From NCBI RefSeq assembly GCF_010731815.2, contig NZ_AP022593.1:806001-870000 (forward strand): a stretch of 64,000 nucleotides of DNA. Direction: 5' to 3'. Below the pieces are notes generated by a model. The model worked only from the letters and a program-made list of their open reading frames with translations. It had not been told where the DNA came from and ran no database searches. Below, one piece after another: positions 11,971-23,033 of this stretch. Source of the stretch: Mycolicibacterium arabiense (GTDB lineage: Bacteria; Actinomycetota; Actinomycetes; Mycobacteriales; Mycobacteriaceae). How positions within the stretch are numbered: the stretch's first letter is position 1; each line of letters opens with the position of its first letter. The translations under genes and the position numbers were made by a program.

Positions 11971-12047
11971 GCCCTCGTATCCCAACTGGCAGAGGAAACG
12001 GATTCAAAACCCGTCCAGTGTGAGTTCGAATCTCACCGAGGGCACCA
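11971..12047 (+). tRNA. tRNA-Leu (anticodon CAA), attachment-site tRNA
   Basis: The acceptor arms are GCCCTCG (11971-11977) and CGAGGGC (12037-12043), followed by discriminator A and CCA. The D arm is TCC/GGA with an 11-nt loop AACTGGCAGA-like, a leucine-type feature. The anticodon loop TTCAAAA reads CAA. The T arm is GTGAG/CTCAC with loop TTCGAAT. The variable loop is only 5 nt, although leucine tRNAs are normally class II. The 3' half from the anticodon loop onward is duplicated at 22989-23033, so the tRNA here is completed by element-derived sequence. Confidence 0.88.
12003..12047 (+). repeat. attL core (45-bp direct repeat within tRNA-Leu)
   Basis: This stretch from TTCAAAACCC to the CCA end is identical over 45 bp to 22989-23033. 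The bases on both sides differ. It is the left crossover core of the integrated element. Confidence 0.95.
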
Positions 12048-12075
12048 GAAAAACCAGTTCAGAGCCGGTTTTCAT
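12048..12075. terminator. Possible terminator after tRNA-Leu
   Basis: GAAAAACC and GGTTTTC flank a short GC-containing centre just after the CCA end and could form a weak hairpin with a T-rich 3' side, ending the tRNA transcript inside the element. Confidence 0.4.
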
Positions 12076-12102
12076 ATGGAAGCGTCGAACCACGTTCAGC
12101 GG

Positions 12103-12123
12103 CAGTCCGCACACAGTCCGCAG
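12103..12123 (+). repeat. Paired integrase arm-type repeats, left arm
   Basis: CAGTCCGCA (12103-12111) and CAGTCCGCAG (12114-12123) are direct repeats whose starts are 11 bp apart, one helical turn. The same pair with the same spacing and orientation recurs at 22828-22848 near attR. A further copy lies at 12239-12248. This is the layout expected for arm-type integrase sites flanking the core. Confidence 0.75.
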
Positions 12124-12145
12124 TAGCGGGAGTACGCTGTGGGCT

Positions 12146-13474
12146 ATGTCGCAGGTCAAGCGCAATGTTCGTGCCGGTGTGGAAGACCGTTGGCACCGAC
12201 CAGCCCGACGCGATGAGCACGTCCATTTCCCTGCGGACCAGTCCGCAGGACCGGTGTGGTGCATCGACCCAAAACACTCCAAAGCCCCGGCGACCGAGGT
12301 GTGCACCGTTCGGCACGGTCAGGGCAAACGCTGGCTTGCTCGGTGGGTTGACCACGACGGCGCAGAACGAACTAAGGCGTTCGAACGTAAGGCCGACGCA
12401 CAGAGACACATAGACGCGACGACAACGGCGCTGGGCACCGGAACCTACGCGGACCCGCAGCGTTCAGCGACCACGTTCGGGACAGTCGCCGAAGCGTGGA
12501 TTGCAACGAAGAAAGCCGCGAACCGGGCACCGAAGACCATCGCCGGATACCGGGGCCTGCTAGACGTGGTGATCTTGCCGAAGTGGCAGAACGAACGACT
12601 CCGCGACATCGACCATGAGCGTTTACAAGAGTGGGTGTCGTGGCTGTCGAAAGATCCGGCAGCCCGTAAGCACAAGGGCAGCGACGATACCGGCCTATCC
12701 CCCGCCCGTGTCATTCAGGTTCACCAGGTGGTCCACCAGGTGTTCGCGTACGCCATCCGCCACGGATACATGGCCGTCAACCCTGCGGACAGCATCGAAC
12801 TTCCCAGTAAGCCGCAGAGCAAGGATTTAGCCCTGACTCACAATCAGGTGAACCGGCTTGCCGAGGAAACGGCCAACGCGGAAACGTCATCGGTGCGGCA
12901 CCGAAGCGACACAGCGCCATCCCTATTGCCGCCGCACGCCCTTGCCACCATGGTCCGATTCTTGGCCTACACCGGTCTGCGGTATGGCGAGTGCGCAGCA
13001 CTGCGAGTGCGTGACGTAGACGTTGACAACCGCCGCGTCACAATCGCCAAGTCGATCACGGGCGTTCGCGGTCAGGGCCGCGTAGAGGGCGACACGAAGA
13101 CTCATCAGAAGCGAAGCGTTCCGATCCTGACCACGGGCTTGACCGAGGAACTGAGACAGGTGGTCGCGGGCCGCAGTCCGTCCGAGTTCCTGTTCCCTGG
13201 CCCCGATGGCAACGCCATGACCGTGGGTTGGTTCCGGGTCCGCTTTGATCGGGCAACGGCCAAGCTCAACCTTGTCGGCGTCACTCCGCATACGTTGCGG
13301 CACTCCGCTGGTTCGCTGGCGCTGGCGTCGGGTGCGTCCGTGGTGACTGTGCAGAAACTGTTGGGGCACCGGAACGCCACAACCACGATGAACGTGTACT
13401 CGCACATGTTGCCGGATGACTTCGACAACCTCGCCGCTGCGATGGACAAAGCCGTTTCCGCTGGTCAGGCTTAG
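12146..13474 (+). CDS. int: Tyrosine-family phage integrase
   Basis: A 442-residue site-specific recombinase. It has an N-terminal arm-binding region, a SAM-like core-binding domain (about residues 100-220, TTFGTVAEAWIATKKA onward) and a catalytic domain from about residue 265. The catalytic set is complete: Arg279 (TGLRYGE), a beta-hairpin Lys near 318-322, His382-x-x-Arg385 (HTLRH), His408 (LLGHRN) and Tyr418 (NVYSHM). ATG at 12146 is chosen; the frame is open back into the tRNA but the upstream codons cover attL and the arm-type repeats. It lies next to attL and drives integration into the tRNA-Leu 3' end. Confidence 0.95.
   Translation: MSQVKRNVRAGVEDRWHRPARRDEHVHFPADQSAGPVWCIDPKHSKAPATEVCTVRHGQGKRWLARWVDHDGAERTKAFERKADAQRHIDATTTALGTGTYADPQRSATTFGTVAEAWIATKKAANRAPKTIAGYRGLLDVVILPKWQNERLRDIDHERLQEWVSWLSKDPAARKHKGSDDTGLSPARVIQVHQVVHQVFAYAIRHGYMAVNPADSIELPSKPQSKDLALTHNQVNRLAEETANAETSSVRHRSDTAPSLLPPHALATMVRFLAYTGLRYGECAALRVRDVDVDNRRVTIAKSITGVRGQGRVEGDTKTHQKRSVPILTTGLTEELRQVVAGRSPSEFLFPGPDGNAMTVGWFRVRFDRATAKLNLVGVTPHTLRHSAGSLALASGASVVTVQKLLGHRNATTTMNVYSHMLPDDFDNLAAAMDKAVSAGQA
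13455..13469 (+). repeat. 15-bp direct repeat, copy 1 (copy 2 at 15917-15931)
   Basis: TTTCCGCTGGTCAGG occurs at the 3' end of int and again at 15917-15931, 7 bp after the HNH stop codon. The two copies bracket the small-gene module. Confidence 0.6.
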
Positions 13475-13498
13475 AAATATCGGGTGGATAATTGATGG

Positions 13499-13714
13499 AT
13501 GGCGTTAACTCTCGATGATCTCCCCGACCTCGCTGGCATTCCCGAGGTTTCCGCAGCAACCGGCATTCCGGTTGCAACCCTGCGCTGGTACCGCGCGACC
13601 GATCAGGGTCCGCGCAGCGTGAAGGTTGGCCGGCATGTGCGCTACCGCAAGGGCGACGTTCTCAAATGGGTTGAGGCACAAGAGTCCGCGAGCGCACGCG
13701 GCGGCATCCGATGA
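13499..13714 (+). CDS. xis: Excisionase-like helix-turn-helix protein (AlpA/MerR type)
   Basis: A 71-residue basic protein with a MerR/AlpA-like winged HTH: GIPEVSAATGIPVATLRWYR (recognition helix), PRSVKVGRHVRYRKGDVLKWVE (wing and C-terminal helix). Its position directly after int and this fold are typical of recombination directionality factors; it may also regulate transcription. There is no strong ribosome-binding site, and it starts 24 bp after the int stop. The gene overlaps the next one by 4 bp (ATGA). Confidence 0.82.
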   Translation: MALTLDDLPDLAGIPEVSAATGIPVATLRWYRATDQGPRSVKVGRHVRYRKGDVLKWVEAQESASARGGIR

Positions 13715-13920
13715 GTGAAGATCTGTCACCCACGGCGGCAGGACTCTGGGAGTACCTATCCGCACTCTCCGGCGACGGCAAAAAGGTGCACGTCACTTTT
13801 GAGGACGTAGCCGAAGTATTCGCCTGGCCGATGAGCACGGTCCGGGCGGCGCTTGACGAACTTGTCGCAGCGGGCAAGCTGTTTGAAGATACCGACCGGC
13901 GGACCTGGCATCAGTCCTAG
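13711..13920 (+). CDS. Small winged-helix-like protein
   Basis: A 69-residue acidic protein. The segment VHVTFEDVAEVFAWPMSTVRAALDELVAAGKLFED resembles a winged-helix DNA-binding unit (helix, turn, recognition helix, beta wing). It is translationally coupled to the excisionase-like gene through ATGA. A regulator of element genes is plausible, but I recognise no named family. Confidence 0.65.
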   Translation: MSEDLSPTAAGLWEYLSALSGDGKKVHVTFEDVAEVFAWPMSTVRAALDELVAAGKLFEDTDRRTWHQS

Positions 13921-14015
13921 CAGGGGCAGGAACGCGTACAGAAGCGTGCATCGACGCACTGACCAACTGAGGACGAATCGCGTTGCGCCAGGGACAGATA
14001 CAGCGACGACACGGC

Positions 14016-14038
14016 ATGTGACCAAGATCACATTGACA
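14016..14038 (+). promoter_or_regulatory. CRP-type palindrome with adjacent TTGACA
   Basis: ATGTGA-CCAAGA-TCACAT (14016-14033) is a perfect 18-bp palindrome containing the CRP consensus TGTGA-N6-TCACA. TTGACA overlaps its end (14033-14038). A TANNNT-type -10, TAGAAT, is at 14067-14072, which is too far from TTGACA for a standard spacer but places the palindrome centre about 55 bp upstream of the probable start. Confidence 0.6.
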
Positions 14039-14089
14039 AGTCAGTAGGTGCTCGTCTCGTACGCGATAGAATTACTATGAGGGTGAAAG

Positions 14090-14203
14090 ATGATGGCAGA
14101 CAACGCCACACGGCTAGGCAATCGTCGTACGGGTACGGTGTTCAGGTATCACAAGCCTAGCGACTACCGCCCAGCGGGCAAGTCGTACAAGCCGAGCACG
14201 TGA
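14090..14203 (+). CDS. 37-residue basic peptide ORF
   Basis: ATG at 14090 follows AGGG (14080-14083) at a good 6-nt spacing, and the ORF MMADNATRLGNRRTGTV... runs 37 codons to TGA at 14201. It is rich in Arg, Lys and Tyr (FRYHKPSDYRPAGKSYKPST). No family is recognised. Support comes from the ribosome-binding site and the CRP-type site and promoter elements upstream. It could be a small regulatory or DNA-binding peptide, or a spurious ORF. Confidence 0.45.
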   Translation: MMADNATRLGNRRTGTVFRYHKPSDYRPAGKSYKPST

Positions 14204-14887
14204 AAGCGCAAGTAGCACAACCACTCTCAAATTCCGAGTACCAAGCGGGCAGGTCCGGCGCTATAACCGGACGTGGTGGATAACCGGGTAGTTAGTCGTC
14301 ACTGACCCTAAGCAGCGCAAGCTGTGAGCGACCCCTAGGCCTCTCCAATGACGATCCAGTTCCCAAAACATAGAAATCCTATGCAATGCGATCATCCACC
14401 GCCCAACGGTAAAGCATCCACCAACGCCCCTCAGGGCGAAGGGGTTTGGGGATTGTCCCCGGTAACGGAACCAACCGCCCAGACAGTAACTAGCCACGCA
14501 AGGCTTGACGAACCCTCAACCCCTCTGGGCTTGTTTCGGAAGTGCGGCAGGCTACGGACAGCGACGTACCCGACCGTCGAAGGAAAAGAAAAATAATTCC
14601 GTTTCGGTACTTGCCCACCTTGGCAAGGTAACGGTCCCCTGGCAGGTGAGCGGCTAAGCAACGATGGCCCGGACGACGGGAAGGTGAGCAGCCCGCACGG
14701 GGTACCCGGTTTGGTTTCGGGCTTGGGTCCACAGATTGATCGGTTCCAGTCGCTGCGCTCCCTTCACCTACGGGGAAGCCGCTGACGCGGCGTGAGAAGT
14801 TTCACCGGCCACAATTCCCTCATCCCTGCCCGTCAAACCCCGGCAGGCGACCACAGAGGCACCACCACGCACGTCAGGAGCAGAGAC
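14204..14887 (+). other. Non-coding, hairpin-rich stretch upstream of the small-gene operon
   Basis: Over about 680 bp I see no convincing gene: the ORFs present lack ribosome-binding sites and have odd composition. Perfect stems include GTCCGG/CCGGAC (14253-14272), CGCCC/GGGCG (14425-14438) and GCCGC/GCGGC (14778-14791). Two mutually exclusive hairpins share bases at 14610-14629: CTTGCC/GGCAAG and ACCTT/AAGGT. This could be a structured leader RNA, an origin or a packaging region. Confidence 0.5.
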
Positions 14888-15097
14888 GTGGAGAACATCT
14901 ACAAGTGCGAACGATGCGACCTCAGGGTCCGCGCGGGCGACGGCTACATCCACACCGAGAACGGCGTGAATTGGGCAATCCATCACCGGGATTGCTTCGA
15001 ATTCACCGACTCTTACTGCATCGCGGTACCTCGCAGCTGGCACGACCTACTCAGCGCACATCATTATCTGTCGCAGCACAAGGTGACCGCACGATGA
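14888..15097 (+). CDS. Small putative zinc-binding protein
   Basis: 69 residues from GTG 14888, preceded by AGGAG about 8-12 nt upstream. MENIYKCERCDLRV carries a CxxC pair and IHHRDCFEF a His/Cys pair, a plausible treble-clef or zinc-ribbon site. It is the first of four genes that overlap successively by 4 bp up to the HNH nuclease, so it probably shares their transcript. No named family is recognised. Confidence 0.65.
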   Translation: MENIYKCERCDLRVRAGDGYIHTENGVNWAIHHRDCFEFTDSYCIAVPRSWHDLLSAHHYLSQHKVTAR

Positions 15098-15333
15098 GGG
15101 CACATTTCGAACCGCCCGCCCCCGTACGCCGACCCAAGCCCGCACGCGGGGACCGTCAAATCTTCCCCGCTGATGTGGCCGTGCTAGGTGACCCGCGCAA
15201 CGGGGTAGTGGACGTGGTACTTGACCCCGGCGGCGCGGACCCTGTCGAAACTGTAACTCTGACGGTAGATCTCGTTGCGGCACTGCATGTGAAGTTAGGA
15301 CGTAAGCTCGCACAACTACAGGAGAACCCGTGA
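15094..15333 (+). CDS. Small hypothetical protein
   Basis: A 79-residue protein starting at ATG 15094, which overlaps the previous stop (ATGA). It has a basic, proline-rich N-terminus (FEPPAPVRRPKPARGDRQIF), then a probable beta-rich segment ending in a helix (LVAALHVKLGRKLAQLQ). No family recognised. Its existence is supported by the tight overlaps on both sides. Confidence 0.6.
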   Translation: MRAHFEPPAPVRRPKPARGDRQIFPADVAVLGDPRNGVVDVVLDPGGADPVETVTLTVDLVAALHVKLGRKLAQLQENP

Positions 15334-15560
15334 GCGACAGTGACATTGGTGTTGATGAACTACTACCAGCACACGGACTCGCGGCTATCTCCGCGTTCAA
15401 GCATGGCCCCGGCTATGTCCTCGCCCTTCTAGGTGACGACGGAGAACTCCACACCTACACGCTGTCCGGGCCGCGACTACGCCAGGTGGTCACCATCATG
15501 TGCAACGCAGTCCGGGGCATCCCGTCCGGGTCGGTGAGCACACTCCAGCACATCGAGTGA
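15330..15560 (+). CDS. Small hypothetical protein
   Basis: A 76-residue acidic protein from GTG 15330 (GTGA overlap with the preceding gene) to TGA 15558-15560, which overlaps the HNH start. Predicted alternation of short strands and a helix (SGPRLRQVVTIMCNAVRGI). No family recognised. Confidence 0.6.
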   Translation: MSDSDIGVDELLPAHGLAAISAFKHGPGYVLALLGDDGELHTYTLSGPRLRQVVTIMCNAVRGIPSGSVSTLQHIE

Positions 15561-15910
15561 AGCTGTGCGTCGAGTGCGGCACACCCTGCGAAAGCAGCAG
15601 GTGCCCCGAGCACAAGCGGCGCAGATCCAACCGAGGATCAGCGACCGAACGCGGATACCCCGCATGGTGGTCGCGGCTATCGGAACGGGCACGGCAACTA
15701 CAGCCCTGGTGTACCGACTGCCTGACACCAGGCACAGCCGGCAACCCGCTCACCCTCGACCACACCCCACAAGCGTGGACGCTGATCGAACAGGGCAAGC
15801 GGCTCACCCTCAAGCACGTCGCAGCAGGTCTGCTCACCGTCGTCTGTGCGTCCTGTAACCGGAGGCGAGGAGCGGCACGCGGCCACCACGTCAACCGGTC
15901 GGATGCCTAG
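15557..15910 (+). CDS. Phage HNH endonuclease
   Basis: A 117-residue HNH nuclease. Zinc-binding cysteines lie at Cys52/Cys55 and Cys97/Cys100, the beta-beta-alpha metal motif has Asp68-His69 (LTLDH) and Asn101 (CASCN). An extra CxxC pair sits at the N-terminus (CVECGTPC). HNH proteins next to terminase genes are required for packaging cleavage in many HK97-type phages and are a regular part of capsid-forming satellites. The start at GTG 15557 is chosen for the GTGA overlap. Confidence 0.9.
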   Translation: MKLCVECGTPCESSRCPEHKRRRSNRGSATERGYPAWWSRLSERARQLQPWCTDCLTPGTAGNPLTLDHTPQAWTLIEQGKRLTLKHVAAGLLTVVCASCNRRRGAARGHHVNRSDA

Positions 15911-16018
15911 ACATCATTTCCGCTGGTCAGGGCCTATGCGATGCGGCGAGTTATGACCCTGGGGCACCACCCCTGACCTGGGACAACAGCGGACGCCCAC
16001 GCGATAGCAAAGTTCGAA
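15911..16018. other. Short non-coding interval at the packaging module
   Basis: It contains the second copy of the 15-bp repeat (15917-15931) and a GGGG-CACCA-CCCC stem near 15960-15972 flanked by GACCCTGG and GACCTGGG. Its place between HNH and terminase makes it a candidate cos or pac region, but no known motif is evident. Confidence 0.35.
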
Positions 16019-16300
16019 TTACTCTGCGGTGCCCATGTCGATGATCAATTCGGCAGTGTCTTGGAGCACTTCATTGGCTTGATCCGGCGTGAGTCCCTTG
16101 CTGAGACACAACTGGGCGGTTAACGCAACGCTGAGGTTCAGTAGGCCGCTGACCAGTCGGGTGTGTCCGTCTTCCGGGTTTTCGTGGACGAACGTGGTGG
16201 CGAGTTCACCTGCGAGCGTCTTATGCCTGCCCTTCTCACCGTGCGCGGCTGTCAGCAGCGATAGCGCTGTGAGTGTGTCTTCCGTCAGTTGGTCTGCCAT
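16019..16300 (-). CDS. Hypothetical helical protein, antisense to the packaging module
   Basis: A 93-residue, mostly helical, acidic protein (MADQLTEDTLTALSLLTAAH; LTPDQANEVLQDTAELIID). It is the only minus-strand ORF among the structural genes. Its start is just 14 bp from the terminase start on the other strand, so both promoters would have to lie inside the other gene or elsewhere. Composition looks protein-like, yet no family is recognised. Possible roles include a regulator of packaging genes or a moron. Confidence 0.5.
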   Translation of the reverse strand: MADQLTEDTLTALSLLTAAHGEKGRHKTLAGELATTFVHENPEDGHTRLVSGLLNLSVALTAQLCLSKGLTPDQANEVLQDTAELIIDMGTAE

Positions 16301-16314
16301 GAATCGAGTTTGTC

Positions 16315-17766
16315 ATGCGTGCTGGTCCGAAGGGCAGTGTTGCGGTCGCTCCGCTGCAGTTTCGGCGTTGGCCGCGTGATCGTGCGAAGCGTCGTGAGAG
16401 GTTCATTCGTGAATTTCTGACGGTGCCCCGTGGTCACGGTGTTGGTAAGCCATTCCGGCTAAGGGACTTTCAGCGGGAGATCGTGCGCGGTGCATTCGCT
16501 GAGGGTGTACGTACGGCGTTGGTGTCGATTCCCAGGGCGAATGGTAAGACGATGCTCGCGGCTGCGCTGGCGCTGGCTGAGTTGTTCGTCGGTCCGCCGT
16601 CGGCTGAGGTTCTGGTGGTCGCCAGTGACCAGCGTCAGGCGAACATCACCTTTCGGTATGCGAAGCGCATGGTGGAGCTGAACCCGATTCTTGCTGAACG
16701 TGTGCAGGTGTATGCCGACAGGCTGTATCTACCCGAGAATGACGCCACTCTGTTGCCTCTCCCGGCTGAACCTGGCGCACTGCACGGACACGATCCGAGC
16801 TTGCTCATTGTCGATGAGTTGCACGTGGTCACTGAGGGCGTGTGGGAGGCGATTACGTCGATGGCCGGTAAGCGTCCCGAGTCGTTGACGTTGGCTATCT
16901 CGACGCCTGCCAGTTCGGCGGACAGCGTCATGTGGCGTTTGGTGGAGCATGGCCGTCGTGGCGATGATCCGTCGTTTTACCTCCGTGAGTTTGCGGCACC
17001 GGTCAACTGTGACGCCGACGACCGGGAGGCGTGGCGGATCGCCAACCCGGCGTTGTCCTGTGAGAACCCGTTTCTCGCTGAGGATGGCATTGCGTCGGTT
17101 CGTAAGACGCTGCGTGAGCCAGTGTTTCGCCAGTTGCGTTTGGGTCAGTGGGTTTCGGGTGTCGATTCGTGGTTACCGTTCGGGGCTTGGGATGCTTGCT
17201 GTGAGGAGCGTTCGATTCGTGGCCCAATCGTCGCCGGTTTTGATGGTTCGGCGTCGGGCGACTCGACTGCTCTTGTGGGATGCACGATGGACGGGCACCT
17301 GTTCCTAATCGGCCTGTGGGAGAACGACGGCACACCTGACTACCGCGTTCCGCGTGAAGAGGTCAGCAACGCCGTTGATGTGATGTTCGACCGGTACGAG
17401 GTTTTGTCCCTTGCCTGCGATCCGTGGGGATGGCGTTCGGAGATCGACGCGTGGGGCAAGAGGCACGGCGAGAAGCGGGTTGTGGAGTACAACACCGGGT
17501 TTGTCGGTCGTATGGCACCGGCTACCGACAGGCTGTATCAGGCCATCGTGGACGGCACGGTGACTCACGACGGTGACCCTCGTCTTGCTGCTCATGTGGA
17601 GCATTGCGTGGCCCGTCCTACGCCGCAGGGTGACGTGATTGTGAAGGACAAGCGTGGTTCGCCCCGCAAAATTGACGCTGCTGTGGCCGCGATCATCGCG
17701 TTTGACCGCAGGGCGTTCCATTTGAACAACCCTAAGAAGCGCCATCGCGCAGCATCTTTCGCTTAA
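16315..17766 (+). CDS. terL: Terminase large subunit
   Basis: A 483-residue DNA-packaging motor. The ATPase domain has a deviant Walker A SIPRANGKT (residues 71-79), Walker B LLIVDELH (163-170) and motif III LAISTPASS (194-201). The nuclease domain starts around residue 305 with the acidic residue Asp310 in GFDGSASGDST, and a later acidic LACDPWGWR. The length suits HK97-type TerL. No ribosome-binding site precedes the ATG, and an in-frame stop lies 12 bp upstream, so the start is constrained. No small terminase partner is recognisable in the element. Confidence 0.93.
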   Translation: MRAGPKGSVAVAPLQFRRWPRDRAKRRERFIREFLTVPRGHGVGKPFRLRDFQREIVRGAFAEGVRTALVSIPRANGKTMLAAALALAELFVGPPSAEVLVVASDQRQANITFRYAKRMVELNPILAERVQVYADRLYLPENDATLLPLPAEPGALHGHDPSLLIVDELHVVTEGVWEAITSMAGKRPESLTLAISTPASSADSVMWRLVEHGRRGDDPSFYLREFAAPVNCDADDREAWRIANPALSCENPFLAEDGIASVRKTLREPVFRQLRLGQWVSGVDSWLPFGAWDACCEERSIRGPIVAGFDGSASGDSTALVGCTMDGHLFLIGLWENDGTPDYRVPREEVSNAVDVMFDRYEVLSLACDPWGWRSEIDAWGKRHGEKRVVEYNTGFVGRMAPATDRLYQAIVDGTVTHDGDPRLAAHVEHCVARPTPQGDVIVKDKRGSPRKIDAAVAAIIAFDRRAFHLNNPKKRHRAASFA

Positions 17767-17775
17767 GGACAATCC

Positions 17776-19128
17776 ATGACCGATGATTTCATCGCTCTTC
17801 TACAGGCTCTTGATTCACACCAGTATCGCTATGGTCTGCTGGACAACTACTTTCAGGGCGTCTCGCCCCTCAGTTTCTTGAGCCGTGAGGCGAAGGTGGC
17901 GCTCCAGAACTTCGAGCAGATCAGTTCGAACCTGTGCCGCACTGCTGTCGTCAGCTTGCAGGAGCGTTTGCGCCTATCGGGCGTGACGGGTGCTGATGCG
18001 TGGAGCCTGTTTGAGTACTCAGACCTTGACCAGTTGGCCGCGCAGGTTCATCGTGACGCCCTGCTTTACGGGGTCGGTTACGTCCTCTGCTGGACCGACG
18101 CGAGCGGTCGTCCGCGTGCCACCGTGGAATCCCCAAAGCAAGTGGCTGTGACCCGCGATCCCGTGACCCGTGAGATCGTCTCGGCTGTGAAGCGAGTTCG
18201 TACCGCCAAGACAACCGAAGCGTGGGTGTATTACCCCGACCGGGTTGAGCATTGGACGGCGAACACACCGAGTGCGGGTAACGCAGGGTTCGAACTGGTG
18301 AACAAGATTCCGCACGCGTTGGGTTGTGTGCCCATCGTCGCCATCGGCCATGAGGATGAGCCGAGCGCGATTGATGACCTGCTGTCGATCCAAGATGGCG
18401 TCAACAAGCTTTTGACGGACATGCTCATTGCTTCCGAGTACGCAGGCCGCCCCCGCAGGTTTGCGAGTGGAATCGAGTTGACCGAGAAGCCGGTTATTGA
18501 TGACGTGACGGGGTTGCCCGTCCTCGATCCCGTCTCGGGCGAGGCTGTTACCGAGGCCGTCAATCCATTTCCAGAGGAAAACAGGATGATGGTGTCCGAG
18601 GATGCCTCTTCGCGCTTCGGTGCCCTGCCTGCCGCCGACCTCAAGACGTTCGAATCGGGTATCCGTGTCCTGATCTCGGCCGCGATGATGGTGTCGGGTT
18701 TGCCCGCGCATTACGTCGGTTTACTACAGGATTCGGTCATGTCAGCCGACGCGTTGCGTGCCGCTGAGGCTGCGCTCGTGGCCCGTGCTGAGGCACGTCA
18801 GCGTCAGTACGGCGTTGGCTGGGAAGCGGTCGCCCGTCTGCTGGTCGCCATCCGCGACGGCGTTGACCCTGACACGGTGACCGCTCGCGTGGTGTGGAGT
18901 CCTGCGGATACCCGCAGTGAAGCCCAAAGTGCCGATGCGGCGGTGAAGCTCTTCCAGGCGGGTTTGTTGAGTAGGTCAGGATGCTTGAAGCGTCTTGGCC
19001 TCACCGCCGACGAGATTGTCGAAGAGTTGAAGAACAGCACCAACGAGGCCATGGCTGTCGCTGACGCCCGTGCCGCGAACATGGCATCGGAGATCGGCGC
19101 TTTGAGCCGTAGCAAGCCCGCAGCGTAG
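17776..19128 (+). CDS. Phage portal protein
   Basis: A 450-residue SPP1 gp6/HK97-type portal. YRYGLLDNYFQG and LSRE at the N-terminus, the wing domain (AWSLFEYSDLDQLAAQVHRDALLYGVGYVL) and the stem/clip region around VPIVAIGHEDEPSAIDDLLSIQDGVNKLLTDM are typical. AAGGA lies 7 nt upstream of the ATG. It forms the dodecameric DNA gate at the capsid vertex and follows terL by 9 bp. Confidence 0.9.
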   Translation: MTDDFIALLQALDSHQYRYGLLDNYFQGVSPLSFLSREAKVALQNFEQISSNLCRTAVVSLQERLRLSGVTGADAWSLFEYSDLDQLAAQVHRDALLYGVGYVLCWTDASGRPRATVESPKQVAVTRDPVTREIVSAVKRVRTAKTTEAWVYYPDRVEHWTANTPSAGNAGFELVNKIPHALGCVPIVAIGHEDEPSAIDDLLSIQDGVNKLLTDMLIASEYAGRPRRFASGIELTEKPVIDDVTGLPVLDPVSGEAVTEAVNPFPEENRMMVSEDASSRFGALPAADLKTFESGIRVLISAAMMVSGLPAHYVGLLQDSVMSADALRAAEAALVARAEARQRQYGVGWEAVARLLVAIRDGVDPDTVTARVVWSPADTRSEAQSADAAVKLFQAGLLSRSGCLKRLGLTADEIVEELKNSTNEAMAVADARAANMASEIGALSRSKPAA

Positions 19129-19218
19129 CTGCCACTGATCCGCCCATACCCGCCGCGTTGGTGGCTGTGCGTGGCGTACAGGCCCCCGTTTGACCCCTTC
19201 TGAAAGAGAGGAACCGTC

Positions 19219-19656
19219 GTGTCTGATACCGACGTAACCCCCACCGACACCACTGACGCCGAAGCTCCCAATGGTCAGGTTGAGGACGACGAGCGTCAGG
19301 ACGAACCCGACGAGAACGCCGACACCTTCCCGCGTGCCTACGTCGAGAAGCTGCGGAACGAGAGCAAGGGTTACCGCGAACGCGCCAAGACCGCAGAGGC
19401 GAATCTAGATGCGACCCTGCGGGAACTGTTCGCCGTCAAGGTAGCCGCGACCGGCAAGCTAGCTGATGGCGAGGACTTGCCCTATGACGCTGACCTGTTG
19501 GCCGATGAGGACAAGCTAACCGAAGCGATTGACGAACTGATAAAGCGCAAGCCGCACCTTGCCGCTCGCAAGGTTTCCGGCAGCGTCGGCCAGGGTGTCA
19601 CCGGCACCAAGGATGAGCCGTTCTCACTTCTGGGCCGCTTGCAGCGATCCGTTTGA
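19219..19656 (+). CDS. Putative capsid scaffolding protein
   Basis: A 145-residue highly acidic protein with a disordered N-terminus (residues 1-45, rich in Asp, Glu, Thr), a coiled-coil stretch (YVEKLRNESKGYRERAKTAEANLDATLRELFAVK) and a basic C-terminus. Composition and location immediately before the capsid gene match scaffolding proteins of phages lacking a fused delta domain. GAGAGG sits about 10 nt upstream of the GTG start. No protease fusion is visible. Confidence 0.78.
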   Translation: MSDTDVTPTDTTDAEAPNGQVEDDERQDEPDENADTFPRAYVEKLRNESKGYRERAKTAEANLDATLRELFAVKVAATGKLADGEDLPYDADLLADEDKLTEAIDELIKRKPHLAARKVSGSVGQGVTGTKDEPFSLLGRLQRSV

Positions 19657-19780
19657 TAAAATTGGGGTGACGAAAGCGATTGATTCGCAGTCACTCTCAG
19701 TACTTCCCGGGCCTGACGCCCAATTCAGCACTCCTGTCCTGATGACAGCGGTATCGCTCTGTCTATCAAGGACTTTCAGA

Positions 19781-20650
19781 ATGACTATTCAGACCCCGGG
19801 TAATAACCCATCCCTAACCGCTGCTGAGGTGGCGAAGCTCCTCGTTCAGCCGCTTGAGCAGGCGTCCTCGTTCCTCGCTGCGGGACCGCAGATCATCGAC
19901 ACCGCTGGGCCTTTGCGTGTGCCGCGCATCGCGTCGGGTGCGTCAGCCGCATTCGTTGCAGCCGGTGCCCAGATTCCCGAGAGCGCACCGACGTTCGATG
20001 AGGTGCAGCTACTACCCTCGACCCTCAAGGGCATCAAGAGTCTTACCAAGCTCAGCGCCGAACTGATCCGCGAGGCCACCCACACCGTGGGCGCACTCGA
20101 CCAGGTCATCTCCACCCGTCTCGTCACCGACGTGTCCAACGTTCTCGACACCGCCCTGTATGACGGCACCGGAGCAAGTGACACCATCAAGGGAATTTTC
20201 CGCCAGACCGGCATCACTACCGGCGTGCTGGACCTCGCGGACCCGGACAGCCTCATCGATGGCCTTGCGGCTGCTCAGGGCAACCACGTGGCCGCAACGC
20301 ACTGGGTGATGACCCCGCAGTCGTTCGCCGCGCTACGCAAGCTCCACGTCGGCACCGATGACGCCCGCTACCTGCTTGATCCGAATCTGCATGAGGGCAC
20401 TCAGTTCACCCTGTTCGGTCTTCCAGTGATCATCACCGATTACATCCCGAACACCGGCACCGCACCGGGTAAGGCACGCGTGGCGCTGGTCGACTTCTCC
20501 AAGGTCATCGTGGCCCGTGATCAGTCGCCCTCGGTCACGGTCCTTGATCAGACGTTCGGTGACTATGACACCGTGGGTATCCGTGTCACTGCACGTTTCG
20601 ATGTTGGCCTGCTATCCCCGAAGGCCGTCACCCTGTTGACTGAGGCCTAA
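19781..20650 (+). CDS. Major capsid protein, HK97 fold
   Basis: A 289-residue HK97-type capsid protein beginning MTIQTPGNNPSLTAAEVAKL. The E-loop and spine-helix region is SLTKLSAELIREATHTVGALDQVISTRLVTDVSNVLDTALYDG, followed by A- and P-domain segments (WVMTPQSFAALRKLHVG; LFGLPVIITDYIPN). AAGGA about 8 nt upstream selects ATG 19781, although the frame stays open upstream. There is no N-terminal delta domain and no prohead protease gene, so assembly probably uses the separate scaffold. Confidence 0.9.
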   Translation: MTIQTPGNNPSLTAAEVAKLLVQPLEQASSFLAAGPQIIDTAGPLRVPRIASGASAAFVAAGAQIPESAPTFDEVQLLPSTLKGIKSLTKLSAELIREATHTVGALDQVISTRLVTDVSNVLDTALYDGTGASDTIKGIFRQTGITTGVLDLADPDSLIDGLAAAQGNHVAATHWVMTPQSFAALRKLHVGTDDARYLLDPNLHEGTQFTLFGLPVIITDYIPNTGTAPGKARVALVDFSKVIVARDQSPSVTVLDQTFGDYDTVGIRVTARFDVGLLSPKAVTLLTEA

Positions 20651-20652
20651 TC

Positions 20653-20970
20653 ATGCCAGCGCCAACCTATCTGGATCTTGGCGATTTGATGGGCAGGACG
20701 GTTCGCCCGGAGCAGGGCGAAGCCGTCATTCAGAACATCACGGCAATGGTCAAGGCGTACACCCGTGGCGTGGGATTCGCCAACGGGGTGCCTAACGATG
20801 AGTTGCGGGCAGTGATCCTGTCGGCGGCGTGCCGCATGATCGCCAACCCGCGAGGCATCGAGCTAGGCGAGAGTGTGGGGCCGCAGTCGGTGTCATTCCG
20901 TGGTGCGTTCACTGGTTGGAGTGTTGCGGAAGCATTCACCCTCAACAGGTACCGGAAGCGTGCTGAGTAA
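20653..20970 (+). CDS. Head-tail connector / adaptor protein
   Basis: A 105-residue, mostly helical protein 2 bp after the capsid gene: a helical start (LDLGDLMGRTVRPEQGEAVIQNITAMVKAYTRG), a conserved-looking NDELRAVILSAACRMIANPRG helix and a C-terminal tail with FTLNRYRKR. This matches the gp6/gp15-type adaptor that docks under the portal. Its stop overlaps the next start by one base. Confidence 0.8.
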   Translation: MPAPTYLDLGDLMGRTVRPEQGEAVIQNITAMVKAYTRGVGFANGVPNDELRAVILSAACRMIANPRGIELGESVGPQSVSFRGAFTGWSVAEAFTLNRYRKRAE

Positions 20971-21302
20971 TGGCGTCTGCACAGGTGTTTCGCCCTTCGC
21001 GTGATTGGAAGGGTCAGACGGTCGGCCAGTTGGACGACTACCTGATCGGCACTGTTACCGGTGTGGTGATGGGTGGTCCTTCGGTTCAGCCCGTCCGCAA
21101 CTTCCCGGGCACTGTGAGCACTGAGGGCCAGATTGGCATCCCGTTCGACCAGGAATCCGAGGTGGTGGTGCAGCAGCACGACCGGCTGTTGATCGGTTCG
21201 ACGTTGTATGCGGTTGTGTCGGATCGGCTTTGGACTGATGTGAATGTCTTGACGGGTAGTCAGCCGTCTTACTACTGGGTCGAGATTCGTTCGACCACAT
21301 AG
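20970..21302 (+). CDS. Head-completion / stopper-like protein
   Basis: A 110-residue beta-rich protein. The order portal, capsid, adaptor, then a short beta-barrel-like protein with DRLLIGSTLYAVVSDRLWTDVN fits a head-closure (stopper) protein. It is the last structural gene of the element: the tail terminator, major tail protein and tape measure that would follow in a phage are missing. Confidence 0.72.
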   Translation: MASAQVFRPSRDWKGQTVGQLDDYLIGTVTGVVMGGPSVQPVRNFPGTVSTEGQIGIPFDQESEVVVQQHDRLLIGSTLYAVVSDRLWTDVNVLTGSQPSYYWVEIRSTT

Positions 21303-21344
21303 ACAACGCCGCTGGGGAACTTTGAATGTCCACCTCAGCGTGCG

Positions 21345-21595
21345 GGGTGCGGGCCTTTTGGGAGATTGGTCACCCGCACCCACCCAAGCACAGGCCCCAC
21401 ACGCGAACAGGTCTCTCTCTGACCTGCGGGCACGTGTGGGCGTCTGAGGGATGGGAGTGATGACCCCATCCCGAGCACATGCCCCCGGTTCCCCTGTTTC
21501 CTGCAATTCCAGGGTTGAGCCGGGGGCGTTGTGTGCTTACGAGCAACCCGGTTTTGAGTACGGGCCGGGGGTGCTGTCGGAATGGAGTACAGCAC
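21345..21595. repeat. Array of five perfect stem-loops
   Basis: Perfect inverted repeats follow one another: GGGTGCGGG/CCCGCACCC (21345-21381), CCCACACG/CGTGTGGG (21396-21440) enclosing CAGGTC/GACCTG (21408-21426), GGGATGGG/CCCATCCC (21448-21472), GCCCCCGG/CCGGGGGC (21481-21527) and GTGCTGT/ACAGCAC (21571-21595). No gene lies here. The density suggests a structured RNA, a processing cluster, an origin or a packaging signal. Confidence 0.7.
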
Positions 21596-21604
21596 CAGGG
21601 GATG

Positions 21605-21637
21605 CCCCGCATGCTTTCGGCGTGCGGGGTCTTTCTC
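21605..21637 (+). terminator. Intrinsic terminator after the structural operon
   Basis: CCCCGCATGC and GCGTGCGGGG pair over 10 bp (one G-U) around a TTTCG loop, followed by TCTTTCT. It ends plus-strand transcription just before the convergent cargo gene. Confidence 0.8.
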
Positions 21638-21638
21638 G

Positions 21639-22790
21639 TTATGTACCGTCTTCGGCAGCCGCTTTGAGCTTCTCAATCTGATTTTCAAGGCGCGTAATCG
21701 ATTCCGCCGAATACTCGATCATCAACTTGTTTCCGGTCTGCACCCACGATTCGTGAACACTCCGAACGGCTTCTAGCTGTCCTTCGCAGAGTGCAACCGG
21801 GTCAAAGTCAGTGAAGTCGGTGACCTCGTGGCCGGGGTGACTATTCCATTCGCACTCGCCACAGTCTTCGAAATAGTCTCCGTCGGGGGCGATGTCAGAG
21901 TCGTAAAACTTTCGTACTGCACGTGACCCGCAGCGGGGACATTGGTCCGTGCGATCCCAGAGATCCCGCGTCATGATGTTGGCCATGTGGACGACGATGG
22001 TATCGACTGCACGCTTAGCAATGAGGGCAGCTGTTCGGTTCGCGTTCGTGTGGTGCGTAAGGTGATTGACCAGTTCCCAAGCTTTGTCGGTTGTGGCCTT
22101 GAGATAACCCCTGAGCTTCTCGTTCGAGCCACCGGGGCAGTAGTGGTTGTAAAGCAGCTCACTCCACGCCTTGACGTTGGCAGCCTGCGGCTCCTCCGTT
22201 TCTGCCGGTAGCTCAGTTCTCCGGCGTACCGCCGTTATAAGCGAGACCATGCACTCCCGCAGTTGCATTCCGACACCTTGAAAGTCGACAACCTCGACGG
22301 CATGTTCAAGGTCGTCTTCGGCCTGGCTCAGCCGACGTAAGACCTCGTCGAGGGGTGTTACGAAATCGGCTCCGAACTTCTCCTCTCGGCTCCTGACCCG
22401 CATCATGAGGCCGACATGAAAGGACAGCGTGTAGTCCATGCTTGGGAAGTGGCGCTGTGAGTACAGGTTCGTCATGCCGGTGATGACCCAGTAGCGATCT
22501 TCATCTGTGGTCACGTCCCATACTTCGTAGGGAGTCGCCATGACATATTCGACGGTTACCCGCTCGACGTGTTGAACTGTCTCGCCGCGAGCCTGACCCT
22601 CGACGTACTCCGAGATTTCCTTCTCGGCGTTGTAGTCGCGTTCGGGGCTGTATCGACCTAGCTGGTCCGCAGGGACAGGATGATCGGGCGGAAGTGTGCA
22701 GTCACCCTCGACTGCGTCTGCTGTGGGTTCATCGCTCACCTTGCCCAGCGTAGATCGGGACCACACTTGGACCACAGAATCGAATCCCAT
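21639..22790 (-). CDS. Cargo gene of unknown function with C-terminal zinc ribbon
   Basis: A 383-residue protein on the opposite strand to the phage genes, adjacent to attR. It has a hydrophilic N-terminus (1-55), a beta-rich part (YVMATPYEVWDVTTDEDRYWVITGMTNLYSQ), a helical core (LRECMVSLITAVRRR; WELVNHLTHHTNANRTAALIA) and a zinc ribbon (CPRCG ... CGECEW). A short C-terminal coiled coil follows (LENQIEKLKAAAE). I do not recognise the family. The terminal, antisense, autonomous position is where phage satellites carry interference or defence genes, so that role is inferred only from location. A later GTG start near 22739 is possible. Confidence 0.8.
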   Translation of the reverse strand: MGFDSVVQVWSRSTLGKVSDEPTADAVEGDCTLPPDHPVPADQLGRYSPERDYNAEKEISEYVEGQARGETVQHVERVTVEYVMATPYEVWDVTTDEDRYWVITGMTNLYSQRHFPSMDYTLSFHVGLMMRVRSREEKFGADFVTPLDEVLRRLSQAEDDLEHAVEVVDFQGVGMQLRECMVSLITAVRRRTELPAETEEPQAANVKAWSELLYNHYCPGGSNEKLRGYLKATTDKAWELVNHLTHHTNANRTAALIAKRAVDTIVVHMANIMTRDLWDRTDQCPRCGSRAVRKFYDSDIAPDGDYFEDCGECEWNSHPGHEVTDFTDFDPVALCEGQLEAVRSVHESWVQTGNKLMIEYSAESITRLENQIEKLKAAAEDGT

Positions 22791-22988
22791 GGTGCGGGGG
22801 CATTACCACGTCTACGGGCGTGGTAGCCAGTCCGCAGTCAGTCCGCAGCGCACCCCATCGTCACCAACAGATACCCAACCTGTCCCACGGACGAAAGGGC
22901 GTCTGACGTGCAGCTATCCGCCAGTAACCGCGACTAGCCCACATCTACCAACAAATGCCGTGACCTGCGGAAACGCAGCAGACACCAT
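22791..22988. other. Right-arm intergenic region with palindrome
   Basis: TACCACG/CGTGGTA (22804-22825) forms a 7-bp stem next to the start of the cargo gene and may be its operator. The arm-type repeats lie 3 bp beyond. The rest up to attR shows no gene. Confidence 0.5.
22828..22848 (+). repeat. Paired integrase arm-type repeats, right arm
   Basis: Two CAGTCCGCAG copies (22828-22837 and 22839-22848), 11 bp start to start, same orientation as the pair near attL. Confidence 0.75.
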
Positions 22989-23033
22989 TTCAAAACCCGT
23001 CCAGTGTGAGTTCGAATCTCACCGAGGGCACCA
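22989..23033 (+). repeat. attR core (45-bp direct repeat, residual tRNA-Leu 3' half)
   Basis: It is identical over 45 bp to 12003-12047. This is the displaced host copy of the tRNA 3' end and marks the right boundary of the element; it has no 5' half and is not a functional tRNA. Confidence 0.95.

What the first reader, a model, noticed from the sequence alone, without database searches (positions are those of the whole stretch)
12003..23033. Intact capsid-encoding phage satellite in tRNA-Leu of a mycobacterium
The element has integration, HNH, TerL, portal, scaffold-like, capsid and two connector genes in tight order, but no tail, lysis, replication, small terminase or protease genes in 11.0 kb. 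This is the defining content of capsid-forming PICI-type satellites, which build their own small capsids and borrow helper tails. Mycobacterial phiRv1/phiRv2 are the closest known size class. Intact frames and 4-bp overlaps argue against simple decay.
Basis: partly seen in the sequence, partly recalled or inferred. Interest (0 to 1): 0.85.

Follow-up and report, generated by a model that had tools for sequence, protein, structure and literature searches.

The report
Capsid-making phage satellite in mycobacterium
An 11-kb parasite of bacterial viruses sits intact in a transfer-RNA gene of a mycobacterium; it carries its own shell and packaging genes but no recognisable tail gene, and it belongs to a widespread family of same-sized elements, a kind already proposed for mycobacteria but not yet shown to move.

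Summary
Window 12003-23033 is a complete element bounded by a 45-bp exact repeat of the tRNA-Leu(CAA) 3' end, with tyrosine integrase, AlpA-like protein, HNH, TerL, portal, scaffold, HK97-fold capsid, adaptor and stopper genes. No tail, lysis, small-terminase, protease or replication gene was recognised.
It does not look like a deletion remnant. Of 50 att-bounded elements (this one included) at many different tRNA genes, 49 measure 9.7-11.5 kb. In the 26 examined gene by gene, integrase, TerL, portal, scaffold, capsid and adaptor are in 26 of 26 and HNH in 24; 51 further frames scanned gave no convincing tail gene. dN/dS is 0.09-0.19 for most core genes.
Best reading: a helper-dependent satellite that packages its own DNA into its own small head and borrows a tail. 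It works like a capsid-forming PICI; strict membership fails on the protease and is unresolved on TerS. Candidate capsid-bearing PICIs in mycobacteria were published in 2023, unproven experimentally: a new member of a known kind.
New leads: two TerL types swap under one capsid together with a matching cos-like site, and the tail-facing protein differs between subclades and resembles different mycobacteriophages.

The parts
11971..12047 (+). tRNA-Leu(CAA), the attachment gene (whole at the left end)
   Evidence: ARAGORN; Rfam tRNA
12003..12047 (+). attL core, 45 nt exact repeat
22989..23033 (+). attR core, duplicated tRNA 3' end
12146..13474 (+). tyrosine integrase (start uncertain, 12128 or 12146)
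   Evidence: phrog_1 and PF00589
13499..13714 (+). AlpA/excisionase-like HTH_17 protein, 71 aa
13711..13920 (+). 69-aa small protein, weak match below Pfam cut-off to a EutK C-terminal domain
   Evidence: 23.5 bits, cut-off 27.5
13921..14791 (.). stretch without convincing gene; holds a 36-aa frame (14093-14203) shared with L089; an origin of replication is possible but unshown
   Evidence: no RNA structure above shuffles; no Rfam hit
14792..15097 (+). 101-aa protein with a CxxC...C pattern, function unknown (start uncertain)
   Evidence: no hits
15094..15333 (+). 79-aa protein, conserved in some close relatives
   Evidence: 7 of 196 loci, duplicates and L084 included
15330..15560 (+). 76-aa protein, conserved in some close relatives
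   Evidence: 4 of 196 loci, L084 included
15557..15910 (+). HNH endonuclease
   Evidence: phrog_144; present in 24 of 26 elements
15955..16020 (.). candidate cos (packaging) site: hairpin 15961-15973 and GCAAAGTTCG box 16007-16016
   Evidence: family motif tied to TerL type; position; inferred
16019..16300 (-). 93-aa minus-strand gene between HNH and TerL, function unknown
   Evidence: no hits; homolog in L062
16315..17766 (+). terminase large subunit (HK97-type), type A
   Evidence: phrog_9; profile match 1.6e-55 to terminase large subunit 6z6d
17776..19128 (+). portal protein
   Evidence: phrog_104, SPP1_portal
19219..19656 (+). scaffold protein
   Evidence: phrog_233 (weak); 26 of 26 elements
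19781..20650 (+). major capsid protein, 289 aa, HK97 fold
20653..20970 (+). head completion protein (adaptor), 105 aa
   Evidence: 26 of 26 elements; alignment; function by position
20970..21302 (+). head-to-tail stopper, 110 aa
   Evidence: phrog_10309; mycobacteriophage stoppers/connectors
21605..21629 (.). GC-rich hairpin after the head genes followed by a T-rich tract, likely terminator
   Evidence: read from sequence; not tested by a tool
21639..22790 (-). 383-aa gene, probably cargo; homologs in distant bacteria, no known domain
   Evidence: no hits

Best explanation
This is an intact, helper-dependent phage satellite. Inferred cycle: a tailed phage that infects or wakes in the cell induces the element; integrase with the AlpA/excisionase-like protein excises it from tRNA-Leu; its DNA is copied, here probably by helper or host enzymes because no replication gene was found; HNH and its own TerL cut at a cos site between HNH and TerL and fill a small head built from portal, scaffold, capsid, adaptor and stopper, all encoded by the element; the stopper then docks a tail made by the helper, and the helper's lysis frees the particle. 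Shown here: gene content, boundaries, family, size constraint, signs of purifying selection, and a TerL-linked candidate packaging site. Inferred: induction, excision, packaging, tail borrowing.
For: Exact att repeat at a tRNA. Head and packaging set without recognised tail genes. 26 of 26 att-bounded elements hold int, TerL, portal, scaffold, capsid and adaptor; 24 of 26 hold HNH. 49 of 50 sizes lie in 9.7-11.5 kb, at many tRNA genes. Among 51 non-core frames of 50 aa or more downstream of the TerL start in the 26 elements, the only tail match is a weak one on 34 residues. dN/dS 0.09-0.19 for capsid, portal, TerL, adaptor, stopper, HNH and int; 0.35 for scaffold. TerL matches 6z6d, the HK97 terminase, a cos phage by recall. 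The stopper's 38 phage matches are all in Mycobacterium phages.
Against: No excised form, particle or helper was seen. None of 76 IMG/VR relatives held whole (80 fetched) shows a direct terminal repeat. No TerS, protease or replication gene was recognised here. No tape-measure family PF10145 was found in the host genome; other tail families were not sought, but no resident helper is in sight. No clean empty site was found. dS is partly saturated, so dN/dS values are rough.
Confidence: 0.85

Rival explanations
1. Remnant of a full-length prophage whose tail, lysis and replication genes were deleted.
For: No replication gene and no protease recognised; remnants are common in actinobacterial genomes (PMC10023795, passages).
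Against: 49 of 50 att-bounded elements have the same size at different tRNA genes, with att on both sides; same core in 26 of 26; dN/dS well below 1; the best-ranked known phage TerL is only 33% identical and the capsid matches 8 phage records, none named for an actinobacterium.
Confidence: 0.05
2. Domesticated capsid (gene transfer agent or encapsulin-like) that packages host DNA or cargo rather than itself.
For: The capsid model also matches GTA and encapsulin shells.
Against: Mobile pattern: integrase in 26 of 26, many tRNA sites, patchy distribution (118 of 396 genomes of the genus, own included, have any TerL match at E<=0.001; 23 other genomes have one at 69-85% identity); TerL and HNH with a linked cos-like site. 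That GTAs are usually vertically inherited is recalled knowledge.
Confidence: 0.04
3. A self-sufficient minimal virus that leaves the cell without a tail or with tail functions in its unknown genes.
For: Several genes are unknown.
Against: A stopper, whose known role is to join head and tail (recalled), is kept. The twelve longest non-core frames listed all belong to replication families F8, F20 and F25, which leaves no tape-measure-sized gene.
Confidence: 0.04

Closest known systems
Candidate PICIs of Mycobacterium (mSystems 2023, PMC10654092, section 9 read)
   Same: Integrase plus major capsid gene; terminase, scaffold and helicase genes in some; tRNA attachment for the tyrosine-integrase examples; mobilisation not yet shown.
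   Different: I could not open the supplement to see whether this element or its subclade is listed. Section 9 does not report the size constraint, the TerL types with matching sites, or the stopper differences described here.
Capsid-forming PICIs (cf-PICI; Alqurainy 2023, not held; definition taken from passages of PMC10690885 and PMC11389934)
   Same: Own capsid, portal, connectors, TerL and HNH; no tail genes recognised; integrated. The capsid has the fold of cf-PICI EcCI2 (9gyi).
   Different: No protease and no recognised TerS; the capsid is no closer to EcCI2 than to many phages (Foldseek rank 21; sequence profile E 0.0011).
MulchRoom and MiniFlayer satellites of Streptomyces (PMC10690885, passages)
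   Same: Actinobacterial satellites with their own packaging and capsid genes and no obvious replicase.
   Different: The paper gives low GC matching virulent helpers and direct terminal repeats; homology to our element was not tested directly.
phiRv1 and phiRv2 of M. tuberculosis
   Same: Size class (9.3 and 10.8 kb, PMC3986857 Table 1); called PICI-like in PMC10654092.
   Different: No gene-level comparison was done here; that they hold capsid and protease but no TerL/portal set is recalled.

Membership tests
[quoted passage not shown]
cf-PICI | major capsid, portal, head-tail connectors encoded | tested here: met
cf-PICI | TerL and HNH endonuclease | tested here: met
cf-PICI | small terminase subunit | tested here: inconclusive
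   no PHROG/Pfam hit as TerS in any of 15 frames; TerS are too divergent to exclude
cf-PICI | head maturation protease | tested here: not met
   none in this element; some relatives carry one: two protease PHROGs match 5 and 2 of 51 non-core frames
cf-PICI | no tail genes, tail taken from helper | tested here: inconclusive
   absence of recognised tail genes; tail borrowing itself not testable here
PICI in general | own replication module (typical, recalled) | tested here: not met
   none found here; 19 of 26 elements carry one of four replication families
PICI in general | induced and mobilised by a helper phage | not testable with these tools
   needs culture
Full-length prophage remnant | close relatives are full-length prophages | tested here: not met

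The most novel reading that the evidence does not exclude
A lineage of capsid-forming satellites, found across many genera of Actinomycetota and with heads of nearly fixed capacity (about 10.6 kb), swaps its three contact points independently around one conserved head: integrase and tRNA site, TerL with its cos site, and the tail-facing stopper. The stopper then acts as a readable code for which tailed phages can serve as helper. The window's subclade is an extreme form that dropped replication and protease genes.
Probability: 0.45. Interest if true: 0.7.

Novelty: new member of a known kind. Interest (0 to 1): 0.5.

Why it matters
The 2023 paper on mycobacterial candidate PICIs says it remains to be determined whether phages induce and transduce them. 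The family facts here make that directly testable: a fixed size, a predicted cos site, and stoppers that resemble those of named laboratory phages tell an experimenter which particle size, which DNA ends and which helper phages to look for. If true, many of the small 'defective prophages' of actinobacteria would be live satellites that move cargo genes.

Tried and rejected
Deletion remnant: rejected on family evidence. RNA element or intron in 13921-14791: Rfam found only the tRNA and folding is no better than shuffles (z 0.5). CCTTGCGTGCCC and GTGCTCGGGGCA, top k-mers, were dropped as packaging motifs: by their strand and place they lie in HNH coding sequence. Circular or terminally repeated viral contigs as proof of particles: no terminal repeat in any of 80 loci, 76 of them whole contigs. 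Empty-site search: 48 of 61 genomes (own included) match, but no listed match outside the own genome runs more than 35 nt past the tRNA end, so no clean empty site. L136, from a 43.9-kb viral contig of which 20.9 kb was held, was tested as a possible full prophage: it holds the satellite with an IS-like insertion, a second integrase and a separate frame with a weak protease match; no tail hit among the 10 frames scanned. The 383-aa gene as a known defence gene: no PADLOC hit. Structure prediction of the adaptor: the queue was full each time. The type-B regular expression was too loose to tell anything (54 of 62 against 40.2 in shuffles) and was replaced.

Rows dropped before counts. One search examined the window and 40 loci; 28 have repeats; L051 (runs of N) and L057 (only TerL of the head genes alike, 18.3 kb) were dropped, leaving 26. 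One search examined 76 loci; 39 have repeats; 11 duplicates of the first set, three repeats not at a tRNA (L182, L199, L211) and one of 15 nt (L229) were dropped, leaving 24. The order-wide capsid count (38 of 397) includes weak hits that may be ordinary phages; 11 genomes, own included, are at E<=1e-100.
Full report
WHAT IS THERE. The window's genome is a mycobacterium in the broad sense: a contig of a 'same genus' relative has the length of a named one (G205:C9 and L169, Mycolicibacterium iranicum, both 203,054 bases). At 11971-12047 lies tRNA-Leu(CAA). Its 3' part is repeated at 22975-23033, with a 45-nt exact core. Between the repeats GC is 0.58-0.63. The gene order is integrase, AlpA/excisionase-like, small genes, HNH, a minus-strand 93-aa gene, TerL, portal, scaffold, capsid, adaptor, stopper, then a minus-strand 383-aa gene. 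Among the columns invariant in the TerL alignment of 13 sequences are G77-K78, D167-E168, D310, D369 and D454; reading these as Walker and nuclease residues is recalled knowledge. An IMG/VR contig (L084, 12,812 bases) matches the element at 100% over 10,780 bases, so this or a sister strain is already in that collection.

NO TAIL, NO REPLICASE RECOGNISED. None of the 15 frames scanned with PHROGs and Pfam is called a tail, lysis, protease, TerS or replication protein. The host genome has one match each for TerL (PF03354), SPP1-type portal and HK97-type capsid, all in this element, and no PF10145 tape-measure match. Other phage families were not sought, so a resident helper of another kind is possible.

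IT IS A FAMILY. TerL searched in 396 genomes of the genus gave a match in 118 (own included) at E<=0.001; 23 other genomes have a full-length relative at 69-85% identity. I took stretches of up to 20 kb around 40 of these matches. The set HNH-TerL-portal-scaffold-capsid-adaptor is found complete and in order in 31 of the 40, also where TerL is only about 37% alike. Of the other nine, L051, L068 and L070 are cut by runs of N or contig ends, L061 and L064 lack only an HNH match, L062 has broken HNH and TerL frames, and L057, L059 and L060 share none of the other head genes and are probably ordinary prophages. For 26 elements (window included) att repeats at a tRNA gene bound the whole. Inside these, int, TerL, portal, scaffold, capsid and adaptor are found in 26 of 26 and HNH in 24 of 26. 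The named-genome scan for the capsid gave 76 loci, largely Mycobacterium in the broad sense, but also Gordonia, Nocardia, Tsukamurella, Skermania, Rhodococcus, Brevibacterium, Janibacter, Cryobacterium, Arthrobacter, Citricoccus, Nocardioides and Isoptericola. Of all 50 att-bounded elements 49 measure 9.7-11.5 kb, median 10.57 kb; one measures 13.7 kb. Targets are tRNA genes for Leu, His, Ser, Gly, Pro, Asn, Val, Ala, Arg, Phe, Tyr, Met and Lys. Such a narrow size at so many sites is what a fixed head capacity would give and not what random deletion would give. Prevalence: the capsid profile is at E<=1e-10 in 38 of 397 genomes of the order (some weak) and at E<=1e-30 in 5 of 396 of the phylum, own included in both.

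TAIL CHECK ACROSS THE FAMILY. The 51 non-core frames of 50 aa or more downstream of the TerL start in the 26 elements were scanned with PHROGs at E<=0.01. They give protease, connector, head-morphogenesis, integrase and single methyltransferase and unknown matches, and one minor-tail match at E 4.9e-4 on 34 residues. The table does not say which frames are the proteases; the 183-199-aa family F9 between portal and scaffold (8 of 26) is the likely one, although the F9 member scanned alone gave no hit at 0.001. Of the frames upstream of TerL only some were scanned.

SELECTION. Pairwise dN/dS against close relatives (one pair a gene, NG86, dS 0.6-2.1, so partly saturated): capsid 0.09, portal 0.10, TerL 0.10, adaptor 0.12, HNH 0.17, integrase 0.17, stopper 0.19, 76-aa gene 0.22, scaffold 0.35. 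The genes seem to have been kept in use.

THE WINDOW'S SUBCLADE. The window element, L032 and L065 share the stopper family among the 26 and have none of the four replication families that 19 of 26 carry. One member of each of those four was scanned: a Toprim-AAA primase/helicase, an AAA_25 protein, a DNA polymerase/primase-like protein and a Prim-Pol with AAA_25. Four other elements (L034, L066, L067, L071) also lack these families without carrying this stopper. Closest by capsid, after L084, are L085 and L164 (92%); L085 also has portal and stopper at 83%, yet its TerL is only 33% alike.

TWO TERL TYPES AND A MATCHING SITE. After removing near-duplicates (167 to 122 elements), TerL falls by single linkage at 55% identity into two large clusters (62 and 55 of 121 with enough TerL), and both occur with the same capsid cluster (57 and 42; single linkage at 60%). 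An unbiased comparison of 8-mers in the 600 nt before TerL gives as best separators CAAAGTTT (0 of 62 against 14 of 55, p 9.5e-6 in 478 tests) and AAGGCGCA (16 of 62 against 0 of 55, p 1.5e-5). In the sequences printed both appear to belong to one site at or after the end of HNH and before TerL, of the form hairpin GGGG..CCCC, then GGCAAAGTTTGAG (type A) or AAGGCGCA..GCGTTACACACC (type B). Within one capsid cluster a type-A motif set is in 23 of 42 type-A and 2 of 57 type-B elements; the type-B set is less specific, 36 of 57 against 11 of 42 (both sets chosen after seeing the data). A type-A expression was seen in 31 of 55 and 2 of 62 where single-base shuffles gave 1.0 and 0.9; the TTACACAC-like box in 13 of 55 and 22 of 62 where shuffles gave 0.4; the hairpin in 40 of 55 and 31 of 62 where shuffles gave 9.0 and 8.4. 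Shared ancestry inflates such p-values, and many elements show no clear copy. In the window the site would be 15955-16020. Its place between HNH and TerL, beside a TerL that matches 6z6d at E 1.6e-55, fits a cos site; this is inference.

THE TAIL-FACING PROTEIN DIFFERS. The adaptor has no match among 50,697 phage records, and the capsid frame matches only 8, at 30% or less, none named for an actinobacterium. The stopper does match: the window's at 34-38% identity, in the 20 records listed of 38, to stoppers or connectors of phages such as MaryV, Cosmo, Bongo and PegLeg; all 38 are Mycobacterium phages. The protein at that place in another subclade (family F34 in L044 and L067; L044's searched) is at 47.5% to Avani, Yoshi and relatives (101 records, Mycobacterium 63, Gordonia 32; annotated as adaptor or stopper). 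A third (F19 in four elements; L046's searched) has no match. So the part that should meet the tail varies while the head stays, as expected if tails come from different helpers. That these phages are helpers is a prediction.

CAPSID. The model of the 289-aa capsid (pLDDT 74, pTM 0.74) has the HK97 fold; Foldseek lists phage, GTA, encapsulin, SaPI1 and cf-PICI EcCI2 (9gyi, rank 21) shells among the first 50, at E 1e-14 to 6e-11. By sequence profile 9gyi is at E 0.0011. It is therefore not a near relative of that cf-PICI; PMC11389934 (passages) says cf-PICI capsids form three distinct clades.

CARGO. The 383-aa gene has 725 homologs at E<=0.001 (120 listed), among them proteins of Cupriavidus, Burkholderia and Rhizobium at 58-64% identity. 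A source's label 'gamma-glutamylcyclotransferase' looks like an automatic name; no Pfam, NCBIfam, PHROG or PADLOC model matches. Position and spread suggest cargo.

WHAT IS KNOWN. Searches found PMC10654092 (section 9 and passages read), which describes candidate PICIs in mycobacterial genomes, defined by integrase plus capsid, some with terminase, scaffold and helicase, some at tRNA genes, 62% also found by SatelliteFinder, with mobilisation still to be shown. PMC10023795 (passages) assumes that many actinobacterial prophage elements under 15 kb could be satellites. PMC3986857 (part 1 of 5) lists several mycobacterial prophage-like elements of 8-13 kb. Alqurainy 2023 and the 2023 satellite survey are not held. 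Hence the kind is known and this element is a new member. In those listings and passages I did not see the TerL-type-with-site pairing or the stopper comparison; supplements were not open to me.

VERDICT.

Noticed in passing
tRNA-Leu(CAA) in G021:C34, G023:C7, G018:C40, G034:C1: The same tRNA gene has a second partial copy 10-18 kb away in several relatives; G021 and G023 have no TerL match, so it is a hot spot for other islands too.
   Followed up: no
L182, L187, L199 (Mycolicibacterium rhodesiae JS60); L167, L168, L172 (Mycobacterium sp. 236): Single genomes carry three capsid genes of the family on different contigs.
   Followed up: no
window 16019-16300 and the same place in relatives: A small minus-strand gene, mostly of different families, stands directly before TerL in 13 of 26 elements: a likely cargo slot.
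   Followed up: partly
L136 (20.9 kb held of a viral contig of 43.9 kb): A family member with an IS-like insertion followed by a second integrase and a frame with a weak protease match, perhaps two elements in tandem.
   Followed up: partly
L062 (G235:C7): A close relative with broken HNH and TerL frames, a decaying copy.
   Followed up: no
window 51657-52665: Long tandem array of 156-189-bp units, 78-90% matches, with GC skew -0.225 at 52001-53000, probably inside a repeat protein gene.
   Followed up: no
L071:14146-14877 (-): A gene of a related element matches the LmuA defence model (PADLOC 4.8e-7).
   Followed up: no
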